Shown in pieces: positions 47,525 through 50,641 of a stretch of 64,000 nt of DNA. The notes beneath the pieces were generated by a model. It was given only the letters and a program-made list of their open reading frames with translations, had not been told where the DNA came from and searched no databases. The DNA is from Austropuccinia psidii (taxonomy: Eukaryota; Basidiomycota; Pucciniomycetes; Pucciniales; Sphaerophragmiaceae). Position 1 is the stretch's first letter; every line of letters starts with the position of its first letter. Made by a program: the position numbers and the translations under genes. Location of the stretch: assembly GCA_023105745.1 (NCBI GenBank), contig JALGQZ010000001.1, positions 47,553,662-47,617,661 of the forward strand, written 5' to 3'.

Positions 47525-47683
47525 TGTCTTTAATCAAATACTGTGCAGCTGGCAACAGACTCAGTAAAAGATAAATCAATAGTCCCGAATCTTCAGGAGC
47601 AGAATCTGAAGAAAATATTGAGGTGCAGATTGCTAAAAGAGGCACCTTATTCAACTCGGAAAAAGCTAAATTACCACCAAAAG
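47525..47683 (+). pseudogene. ORF1 exon 1 of element D
   Basis: Flanked by an acceptor (tctctttaag) and the donor gtgtgt. Same frame and borders as A's exon 1, with 15 extra bases. A TAA at 47572-47574 stands where A reads tat, so this copy of the exon is interrupted. Confidence 0.6.
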
Positions 47684-47943
47684 GTGTGTATTTTATCTTA
47701 TATTTTCACCTTTTATCTTTAAATTGATGTGAAAATGGTGCATACCAGAAATGGAAGCAACTATTCAGTCCAACCAGATGGATGTGGACAAGGAAGAGGC
47801 AAGACCAAATCCAGAAGTGCCAAATCTTCCACAAGAAAGACACATCTGGAGGATGCCAGAGTTGCCCCCCATTCCCCAAGGTCTGTACCAACAGATTTTG
47901 ACGTAAATTCTGAGCCTGAACTGATTTATGGTAATATTTCCAG
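47684..47943 (+). other. Predicted intron of element D (260 nt)
   Basis: Donor gtgtgt, acceptor atatttccag. Same length as in A. Contains the gag-pol ATG (47735). Splicing yields P-P-K-G-L-N-H-F-Q in frame. Confidence 0.62.
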
Positions 47944-50641
47944 GGCTGAACCACTTTCAGGTGGCAGCAATAGAAATATATCAATGCCAGTACAAAAACT
48001 GGTTCAGAGCAGCCAAGGAAGAGGAGTGGGAAATCTGCCCAAGCCTTTGGCAGGGGGCCATGAACTCCTACTTACACATCAAGAGCTTTCTGGGTCAGGA
48101 GAAGACCATAGAACTCTTAGGAGGATGGAGCCCCCTGTCTTGCAAAGAGAAGGTCAAAAAGATAAAGAATTGGTTGAAGAACCAAAGTCTTTTATCCATA
48201 GACCAGAAGAAAGAGTTGGAAATGACTCCAGCTTTTGAGACAGAGGCACCAGTGGCATCTACCAGCTCCAAACCAGCTCCAGAAGCATCCAAGGACAAGC
48301 CCAAAGGACCTCAAAAGAAACAGAGAGGTCCCAAGAACCATCAAGGCAAGGGAAAAGGCAAAGCCAATTGGCACAAACCTTACCCACAAGGGTACAGGAT
48401 CCCCAAATTGGAACCTTCAGCCATGAACAGTGTCTTCAATATGGCCAGAACTCTTATGGAATTCACAGCCAAGGAGCAGGAAAGGATGAACAGGACTTTT
48501 CCACGCAAATAACTGATGTACATAGAAGTATTAATGTAGAAATTGGCAAACTTGAGTCAAAGTTAAAGCAAATTACATTGGACTTAAATACTTTAAAGAC
48601 AAATGAAAAGAAACATTTTGAATGGCATCAGTTGACAACTGTCACCCTTGAGTCAATTGGCAATGCTTGTGAAAGAATTGAGAACCAATGTCAAACTCAG
48701 AATAATGACACAGAGGATCTTTCCATTTTTAAAGTAAATGATAGACTTAAAACTCTTGAAGACCATGTCTTACAAATACTTAAGAACACCAATCAATTTG
48801 CTATACATTTAGCAAAAAGTGACAGTGAAAGGCAAAAGTTGAAGAATGAGATAATTGCAAGTGTGGAACAAATTCATAAGAATCATGAACCACATATGCC
48901 AAGACATTCTACACCTTTAACTGAAGAAAAACTCTCTGTGAAAGAAAGTCTTACACCATTCTTGGGAGAAAATGCCTACTCTGCAAGAGATATTCCAAAA
49001 ATAGAAGAATGGCCAACATTCTCTGGTGAAGGAGAATACAACCATATTGAATTCATCAGGACTATTGATATGTTTCAAGAAGACTTTAATATACCTGATG
49101 AAATCATAGTGGGAAAACTACACTGTTTGTTTACCAGAACTGCAAAGAAATGGTATTACAAAATGAGGATTGATCATGGCAAACATGACTGGTCTTGGTG
49201 GAAATCTGAAGTGATTACCAAATGGGCTAATAATTCTTGGAGGCTTAAAATGGAAAATGCTTTTGAAAGTGCCATTTTTAACTCAGAAAAAGACAAACCA
49301 CTTACTTGGTTCTTCAAACAAAAAGACAGACTATCTGCTTTACACCCAGATATGTCTGACACTATGATTAATATGAAAATATTGAGAAAGTGTGGAGGAG
49401 AACTGGAACATGCTATCAAAAGCAGATTTGTGGAACCTTGTTCAACAGAGGACTACATTAATGCTATGGAAGATATCATTACCAGGACAAGAATTGGTAA
49501 GACTTGGATTAAAAACCCAATAGAGTCCAAAATAGTCTCAAAGATTCCTAGAGAGGAAAGAAGACCAGAAAGACCTGTCTTGAAGTGTCATAAATGTGGA
49601 AGTACTTCAAATTTAGACAACACTTGTCCTAAGAAGACAAAAATCAATGAAGTTCAAGTCATTGAAGAAATTCAGTGTACTGAGGAGAAAGAGGAGTCTG
49701 ATCAAGATTCTGCAGTCTCTGAAGATACACCAGTGGAGGACTATCCCATTGAAAACATTTCAGCTTTCTTTGAGGTCACAGAAGTCCATACCCACTTGCC
49801 ACAGTACAGTGAGGATTGCTGCAACCTGATCAATATCCAAGATGCCAGAATGTGTAAAACAAAACCTGCTAGAGGAAAGGGTTATACTGCTGGAGCATCC
49901 TGTATCACATCAGTTCTGATGAGTGATATTGAAGCCAAAGTAAATTTGGATACAGGGGCATTTTGCACTTGTGTTGGCAAAGATTATCTCCAAATTATAC
50001 TTCCTGAATGGAAAAACCATCTATTACCAATAGAAGGTGTACAATTCAGTAGTGCCAGTAACAATATGTACCCCTTGGGTATATTGGACACTAATATTGT
50101 ATTCCCACATCCAGCAGGAAGTGTAAGAATGAAAACTGAGATTGTAGTAATGGATAATTGTACATCTCAGCACATCATTCTTGGAAATGATTACTTGAAT
50201 ATTTATGGTATAGATATAAATAACCATAAAGACAGATATTTCACAATTGGAGATAACAAAAGGCAAAAATTTGCTTTTTCCAATATGCCAAAACAAATAT
50301 CTGTAGTATCTTCTGTCAAAGATACTTACAAAGATGAATTTGTGTCTAAACAACTTGTTGAAGCACAAATTAATCCATCATTGTCACCAAAGATGAGGAA
50401 TGAACTTATTGATGTATTATATACATACAATAATGCATTTGCATCTGATAATGAACCATTAGGCGCTATAAGGGGACATGAAATTGATATTACTCTTAAT
50501 ATTGATAGACCATATCCTCCAGTACTTAGAAGACCAGCTTATCCAGCCAGTCCCAGAGCTAGAGAGGCCTTGGAAAAACATATCCAAGAGTTGATCCAAC
50601 TTGGTGTGCTAAGGAAAGTAGGCCATAATGAGGAAGCTTAA
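47735..50641 (+). pseudogene. gag-protease-RT start of element D
   Basis: ATG at 47735 (MVHTRNGSNYS). A TGA at 48236-48238 (gga to tga relative to A) interrupts it; the frame is then open to 50641. It contains a coiled-coil-like region, the gag core (WPTFSGEGEYNH, SWWKSE, EPCSTEDY), a CCHC knuckle (CHKCGSTSNLDNTC), protease DTG (Asp codon at 49949), a linker and the RT N-terminus (PVLRRPAYPASPRA, LGVLRKVGHNEE). gag, protease and RT are in one frame here, showing that the family uses a single fused gag-pol. The stop is created by the deletion into the LTR. Confidence 0.9.
47944..48512 (+). CDS. ORF1 exon 2 of element D (best-preserved copy)
   Basis: About 189 residues, open to a TAA at 48510-48512 (ending MNRTFPRK). 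Motifs in order: GLNHFQ, IYQCQYKNWF, EWEICPSLWQGAMNSY, GWSPLS, KVKKIKNW, a Lys/Gly/Gln-rich basic stretch, KPYPQGYRIPK, VFNMARTLMEF. B's diverged copy keeps the same blocks and the same end. The whole exon overlaps the gag-pol frame in a different register. I know no domain name for it. The basic, proline-rich C-terminal half suggests nucleic-acid binding, which is inference. Confidence 0.68.

What the first reader, a model, noticed from the sequence alone, without database searches (positions are those of the whole stretch)
47525..48512. Splicing appears to switch a Ty3 element between two overlapping proteins
In D (47525-48512), A (2115-3063) and B (24943-24046, minus) a short exon ends with a GT donor and an AG acceptor follows 260, 260 and 284 bases later. 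In all three copies splicing joins the same codon (split after its first base) and gives the homologous string G-x-N-H-x-Q. The intron contains the ATG of gag-pol, and the second exon overlaps gag-pol in another register. Spliced RNA would make ORF1 and intron-retaining RNA gag-pol. Introns are rare in Ty3 elements, and I know no described Ty3 family with this layout.
Basis: partly seen in the sequence, partly recalled or inferred. Interest (0 to 1): 0.86.

Follow-up and report, generated by a model that had tools for sequence, protein, structure and literature searches.

The report
Splicing switches overlapping retrotransposon proteins
In the giant genome of the myrtle rust fungus, an abundant family of jumping genes reads one stretch of DNA in two frames, and two small introns, visible because rare genomic copies lack exactly these pieces, appear to decide whether its RNA makes the coat protein or a second protein of unknown job.

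Summary
The core of the finding holds; its intron is wrong. Donor 47684 and acceptor 47943 are both real but belong to two introns. Intron a (47684-47748, 65 nt) carries the gag start codon (47735). Intron b (47881-47943, 63 nt) is open in the gag frame but has a stop in the ORF1 frame. A conserved 132-nt exon lies between. Seven copies lack both, five of them read. In the B clade (ORF1 48% identical to D) two copies carry both junctions, by position. 5,345 places keep the intron-b donor, so retrotransposed RNA is nearly always unspliced. Changes fixed between subfamilies fall on ORF1 third positions (14 of 16 in exon 3), so ORF1 is a selected protein; the gag frame is kept open there too. The layout recurs in four clades. 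Closest precedent found: Cer1/CERV of C. elegans. Unsettled: the ORF1 start codon, possibly assembled by splicing from an LTR exon (A|TG), and ORF1's function.

The parts
45210..47134 (+). 5' LTR of element D (TGTGAGCC...CTTACA)
   Evidence: LTR pairs and ends; boundaries read from the sequence
46609..46614 (+). candidate first splice donor in the LTR (CAACAA|GTAAGT); exon 0 would end in A at 46608
   Evidence: GT in 20 of 20 LTR pieces that cover it (35 pieces in all), 17 of them GTAAGT; 16-nt window 96.6% against a mean of 87.7%, about rank 48 of 584 windows; A|GT donors in L033 and B at a similar distance. Use is inferred
47135..47149 (+). primer-binding-site-like block TTTGGGGGCCTGGCC directly after the LTR
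   Evidence: same block in A, B, L047, L033, not found in L034 (too short), L037, L048; tRNA not identified
47134..47524 (+). leader without any ATG (0 against about 5 expected), ends in AAG (47524)
47525..47683 (+).
   Evidence: directly joined to exon 2 in spliced copies L064, L065, L067, L068, L070
47684..47748 (+). intron a, 65 nt, contains the gag start codon
   Evidence: absent in spliced copies; GT and AG in 36 of 36 copies
47735..47737 (+). ATG of the gag(-pol) frame (MVHTRN...), followed by 11 nt of intron a
   Evidence: 36 of 36 copies; frame open to 49000 in 15 of 20 near copies
47749..47880 (+). ORF1 exon 2, 132 nt (E-MEATIQ...PPIPQ|G), overlaps gag in another frame
   Evidence: 54 of the 120 listed gene models join it to exon 3 at this junction, 11 more run on elsewhere; conserved with L033/L034
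47881..47943 (+). intron b, 63 nt (21 codons), stop in ORF1 frame, open in gag frame
   Evidence: absent in spliced copies; frames
47944..48512 (+). ORF1 exon 3, overlaps gag in another frame
   Evidence: codon-position pattern; relatives
48513..50641 (+). gag(-protease) frame outside the overlap; pol deleted in D
   Evidence: third-position excess 115 of 229 in 48513-50560; deletion; protease inferred, no Pfam match
2115..3063 (+). same region in copy A: exon 1 2115-2258, intron a 2259-2323, exon 2 2324-2455, intron b 2456-2518, exon 3 from 2519
24042..24943 (-). same region in copy B: exon 1 24943-24794, intron a 24793-24707 (87 nt), exon 2 24706-24575, intron b site 24574-24510 (GA in place of a donor, 65 nt), exon 3 from 24509, cut by a nested element at 24042
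   Evidence: relatives of B with both junctions

Best explanation
This is the 5' coding region of a Ty3-type LTR retrotransposon lineage that encodes two proteins in overlapping frames and chooses between them by splicing. SHOWN, through genomic copies: two small introns, a (65 nt, holding the gag ATG) and b (63 nt), are removed precisely from some RNAs, and a few such RNAs were reverse transcribed into the genome, in two clades. SHOWN by sequence comparison: the ORF1 reading of exon 3 is under selection as a protein, and the gag frame is kept open through the same stretch. INFERRED: unspliced RNA, which is also the packaged genome, is translated from the gag ATG into gag(-pol), while RNA spliced at intron a has lost that ATG and is translated as ORF1. 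INFERRED, weaker: in the D clade the ORF1 mRNA also loses a 916-nt intron from an LTR donor (46609) to the acceptor at 47524, which would remove the primer binding site and build the ORF1 start codon as A|TG. INFERRED, weakest: ORF1, lysine-rich towards its C terminus, acts on the element's RNA, as CERV or Rev do in export of unspliced RNA.
For: Intron-less copies: junction b 15 places with up to 3 mismatches, 8 exact; junction a 8 places, 3 exact; controls 0. Of 8 junction-b places read, 5 lack both introns, 2 lack b only, 1 is a false match. Two more lie in both lists at exon-2 distance, 134 and 133 nt between pattern starts (134 expected). B clade: junction a 5 places, junction b 2 exact; two copies have both, 132 nt apart, not read. 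Unspliced donor-b pattern: 5,345 places. Selection: of 16 exon-3 columns fixed differently, 14 are ORF1 third positions (p = 1e-5 against one third); A-D 25 of 41; the gag-only region peaks at gag third positions, 115 of 229. Gag openness in exon 3: stops 1 vs 7.8, 3 vs 9.0, 0 vs 4.5 expected after synonymous shuffling in D, A, B. Layout in 8 copies of 4 clades: GT donor and YAG acceptor of intron a in 8 of 8, phase 1, gag start position inside it; intron b length a multiple of 3 in 7 of 8 (boundaries set by eye). All four splice dinucleotides in 36 of 36 copies.
Against: No RNA or protein data were at hand: that spliced RNA is translated as ORF1 rests on selection only. The donor of intron b is weak in D (GTCTGT), GA in copy B, GC in L034. 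One exact junction-b match (L063) keeps intron b, so some of the 5 places neither read nor in the junction-a list may be false too. Copies A and D carry stops in the gag frame inside the overlap (3 and 1), and fixed changes there hit gag first positions, so the gag residues in the overlap are little constrained. The exon-0 junction is not in the genome (expected if that splice removes the primer site, so uninformative), and L037/L048 show no A|GT LTR donor. Exon 1 as protein: third-position excess is small (7 of 11, 6 of 10, 3 of 4), and its similarity between copies is significant only for L047-L034 and L033-L034 among 10 pairs. None of 360 listed gene models holds its peptide. The 36 copies counted were mostly best hits, hence biased to intact ones.
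Confidence: 0.85

Rival explanations
1. One reading: one 260-284-nt intron joins exon 1 straight to exon 3.
For: Both end sites are real and in matching phase; donor 47684 scores higher than donor 47881.
Against: 0 genomic matches for that junction against 8 and 15 for the two smaller junctions; exon 2 is conserved and joined to exon 3 in 54 of 120 listed gene models.
Confidence: 0.03
2. Introns a and b are spliced, but exon 1 is untranslated: ORF1 starts at a Met in exon 2 (MEATIQ or the aligned NQ-M-D), so no LTR exon is needed.
For: In the two spliced copies where it could be seen (L068, L070) the upstream acceptor is still in place; the gene models with exon 2 begin at MEATIQ or near it; all four clades have an in-frame Met in exon 2.
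Against: Differences drop where exon 1 begins (fixed 10 of 55 in the leader end, 4 of 144 in exon 1); its one indel between A and D is 15 nt; its frame is open in A, L047, B, L037, L048 and 19 of 20 near copies, though not in D, L033, L034; AG|TG in 7 of 8 copies. The M of MEATIQ is replaced in L047 (I), L033 and L034 (V) and B (E). Gene models may be ab initio.
Confidence: 0.35
3. Splicing of the element is incidental or a host silencing effect; ORF1 is not a functional protein.
For: Roughly 0.3% of copies are spliced; no known domain; no RNA data.
Against: ORF1 frame is constrained within and between subfamilies and 232 codons long in 15 of 20 near copies.
Confidence: 0.06
4. The intron-less copies are ancestral or arose by chance deletion, not by splicing.
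For: They are few, and one of 8 matches read was false.
Against: Both introns missing exactly at GT-AG ends in scattered copies and in two clades; both intron sites present in copies of all four clades.
Confidence: 0.02

Closest known systems
Cer1 and its CERV protein, C. elegans (Gypsy/Ty3)
   Same: Ty3-type element; second protein from a spliced mRNA; an exon in a frame different from gag; unspliced RNA encodes gag-pol (PMC10309623, abstract and passages)
   Different: [quoted passage not shown] here ORF1 is wholly at the 5' end, overlaps gag N-terminally, and gag's ATG lies inside an intron; no sequence relation was tested
Ogre (plant Ty3/Gypsy)
   Same: Ty3-type element with a spliced intron (review PMC12786077, passages); an extra ORF1 before gag (recalled)
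   Different: its intron lies within the pol region (recalled), not over a gag/ORF1 overlap
EVADE/BARE1 shGAG (Ty1/Copia, plants)
   Same: splicing sets which protein an LTR element RNA makes (PMC12786077, passages)
   Different: yields a shortened gag; Copia, not Ty3
Retroviral Rev/Tat-type spliced regulators
   Same: small regulatory protein from spliced RNA, overlapping other genes (recalled)
   Different: no homology shown; function of ORF1 unknown

Membership tests
Ty3/Gypsy (Metaviridae) LTR retrotransposon | RT, RNase H and then integrase in one pol frame | tested here: met
   copy A 5143-7899: RVT_1, RT_RNaseH, Integrase_H2C2, rve in that order (rve below its curated cut-off); deleted in D
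Ty3/Gypsy (Metaviridae) LTR retrotransposon | LTRs TG...CA with primer-binding and polypurine blocks | tested here: met
   read; tRNA primer not identified
Ty3/Gypsy (Metaviridae) LTR retrotransposon | phylogenetic placement of RT | not tested
   no tree was built
Cer1/CERV type | accessory protein from a spliced RNA with an exon in another frame than gag | tested here: met
   spliced genomic copies and frames; RNA and protein themselves not seen
Cer1/CERV type | last part encoded between pol and 3' LTR | tested here: not met
   ORF1 lies at the 5' end, 47525-48512
Cer1/CERV type | nuclear protein needed for export of unspliced RNA | not testable with these tools
   needs cells
Ogre type | intron whose removal restores the pol frame (feature recalled) | tested here: not met
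   the introns found lie in the gag/ORF1 overlap; introns in pol were not sought

The most novel reading that the evidence does not exclude
ORF1's start codon is not written in the element's DNA: it is assembled by splicing an LTR exon ending in A to an exon beginning TG (46608|47525), while the same round of splicing cuts out gag's start codon. The RNA would then be either gag(-pol) genome or ORF1 messenger, never both, and the messenger would lack the primer site. ORF1 would be a fungal Rev/CERV-like regulator of unspliced RNA, kept across deeply split clades of a very abundant lineage.
Probability: 0.4. Interest if true: 0.88.

Novelty: new variant of a known kind. Interest (0 to 1): 0.74.

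Why it matters
LTR elements use one RNA as genome and messenger, and how they divide it is known from few systems. Here a splice switch hides the gag start codon inside an intron, with a stretch of some 700 bases read in two frames, in a lineage with thousands of copies. Because some spliced RNAs were copied back into DNA, the splicing can be read from the genome without RNA. It also means that hundreds of 'hypothetical proteins' in the rust's annotation (906, 734 and 779 hits in three partly overlapping searches) are pieces of element genes. A Rev/CERV-like accessory protein in a fungal element would suggest that such regulators arose repeatedly.

Tried and rejected
Rejected: the single 260-nt intron. 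Rejected: my own first revision, that ORF1 has only intron b and starts at MEATIQ by leaky scanning past the gag ATG; intron a replaced it. Led nowhere: relatives in IMG/VR (pattern stretches, none confirmed) and in prokaryote genomes (likewise); Pfam (no family for ORF1 or the gag frame above cut-off); PDB by profile (one weak hit, E 0.02, to isopropylmalate synthase, taken as chance); AlphaFold of ORF1 (pLDDT 54, pTM 0.23, so no fold search was made); exon-0 junction in the genome (0). Protein searches listed 120 of 906, 120 of 734 and 120 of 779 hits. N-terminus counts are of the 120 listed: one search gave 67 by a rough word pattern; the recount gives 54 joined at the exon 2/exon 3 junction (48 by pattern, 6 by eye), 11 that run on elsewhere and 2 that do not belong. 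The exon-1 peptide was sought by nine words in the 360 listed proteins: 0. Paper searches for a described rust or Ty3 element of this layout; in the listings that I saw (titles and starts of abstracts) only Cer1 came near. Papers: PMC8063080 (section 25 and passages), PMC12774611 (passages), PMC12210899 (passages; the word intron does not occur), PMC12786077 (passages), PMC10309623 (abstract and passages). My notebook gives the gag-open count as 13 of 20; the output shows 15 of 20, used here. The boundaries were set by eye from the printed sequences.

Full report
What it is. The window lies in a 1.015-Gb genome in 84 contigs. Of the 360 listed database relatives all but one (P0175, unnamed) are named Austropuccinia psidii MF-1. 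D, A and B are copies of Ty3-type LTR elements. A holds RT, RNase H and integrase in order. D has lost pol. B appears to continue in 14843-10.1 kb, split by a nested element at 14844-24041.

Observation. The GT at 47684, the AG at 47943 and their phase are there in D, A and B. But of the 120 ORF1 gene models listed, 54 join ...PPIPQ to GLNHFQ, that is 47880 to 47944, a 63-nt intron; 11 run on elsewhere from the same exon. This suggested a different structure.

Structure from other clades. A sample of 20 stretches of 10 kb at regular positions held five more copies of ORF1, from 93% down to 35% identical. Read side by side (boundaries set by eye), eight copies of four clades (D/A/L047, B, L033/L034, L037/L048) share one layout: exon 1 after a YAG or AAG followed by TG (7 of 8; L033 has TT); intron a of 62-87 nt with a GT donor and a YAG acceptor in 8 of 8, the gag start lying inside it (mutated in L034 and L048); exon 2; intron b of 63-90 nt, a multiple of three in 7 of 8; exon 3. 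Donor b is GT in 6 of 8, GC in L034 and GA in B, where the stretch is 65 nt. In L037 and L048 the place of intron b and its phase 0 are my reading; other donors are possible.

Direct evidence for splicing. If these are introns, a retrotransposon may leave spliced copies in the genome. The exon 2/exon 3 junction has 15 matches with up to three mismatches, 8 exact, none in the reversed control. Eight of the 15 were read, 300 nt each: five lack both introns (L064, L065, L067, L068 with one base less at junction a, L070), two lack b only (L066, L069), and one (L063, an exact match) keeps intron b with a changed end and is a false match. The exon 1/exon 2 junction has 8 matches, control 0; six lie in copies of the first list, two (on C11 and at C4:44.3 Mb) do not. 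With L068, seven copies lack both, five of them read and two judged by position. Five of the 15 were neither read nor in the second list. In the B clade junction a has 5 matches and junction b 2, both in copies that also have junction a, 132 nt away; these were not read. The unspliced donor-b pattern has 5,345 places. In L068 and L070, the two in which it could be seen, the upstream acceptor before exon 1 is still in place.

ORF1 is a protein under selection. Between A and D, differences in the gag-only part (48513-50560) peak at gag third positions (57, 115, 57 by coordinate modulo 3), in exon 3 at ORF1 third positions (7, 9, 25). Columns fixed differently between 20 D-like and 14 A-like copies, which leaves out later decay, are 16 in exon 3, 14 of them ORF1 third positions; 5 of 63 in intron b; 0 of 65 in intron a; 2 of 132 in exon 2; 4 of 144 in exon 1; 10 of 55 in the leader end (tests). 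D and B keep 75 of 155 ORF1 residues of exon 3 but 46 of 150 in the gag frame. Intron a's lack of fixed differences is unexplained.

The gag frame. Its ATG (47735) is in 36 of 36 copies (20 D-like, 14 A-like, A and L047). In 15 of 20 near copies it is open through the whole overlap to 49000; ORF1 read from exons 2 and 3 is 232 codons in 15 of 20; 12 of 20 have both. Synonymous shuffling of exon 3 expects 7.8, 9.0 and 4.5 gag-frame stops in D, A and B; 1, 3 and 0 are seen. So openness is kept, while the residues drift.

The start of ORF1. Exon 1 has no in-frame ATG, and the leader none at all (0 against about 5). The LTR has a conserved strong donor preceded by A (CAACAA|GTAAGT, GT in 20 of 20 pieces covering it). 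It is among the better conserved stretches, about rank 48 of 584, not the best. L033 and B have A|GT donors at a similar distance (-1363, -1356 against -1337 from exon 3); L037/L048 show none. Joined to AG|TG this would make an ATG. The junction is not in the genome, as expected if it removes the primer site, so this stays a proposal. The alternative is a Met in exon 2.

How it works, most likely. Unspliced RNA is genome and gag(-pol) messenger; splicing intron a removes the gag ATG, and splicing a and b joins ORF1. What ORF1 does is open: exon 3 has 33 K+R to 19 D+E, no Pfam family and no reliable model. By analogy with CERV (PMC10309623) I favour a role in fate or export of unspliced RNA, with low confidence.

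Comparison. A spliced accessory protein is known in Cer1; splicing in Ogre and EVADE (PMC12786077). The searches named in Tried and rejected listed no rust or fungal element of this kind. Hence a new variant of a known kind.

Noticed in passing
14844-24041: An element with 767-bp LTRs (98% alike) and a pol-like frame is nested in the B/C element, cutting its ORF1 just before the C terminus.
   Followed up: partly
50633-50636: D joins gag directly to the inside of its 3' LTR: pol and about the first 460 bp of the LTR are missing relative to A.
   Followed up: yes
1-1728: The LTR left of A appears twice with a 946-948-bp offset, a tandem or nested LTR.
   Followed up: no
47134-47524: The leader has no ATG although about five are expected; the same in A.
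   Followed up: partly
27426-42633: Repeated stretches, 94-98% alike, 10.6-11.5 kb apart, probably another element pair.
   Followed up: no
36061-36479: Three tandem copies of a unit of about 137 bp.
   Followed up: no
L029-L048 (200 kb sampled): Five ORF1 copies from three clades in 200 kb suggest tens of thousands genome-wide; a small sample.
   Followed up: partly
47684-47748: Intron a has no difference fixed between the D-like and A-like subfamilies (0 of 65), less than the exons beside it; reason unknown.
   Followed up: no
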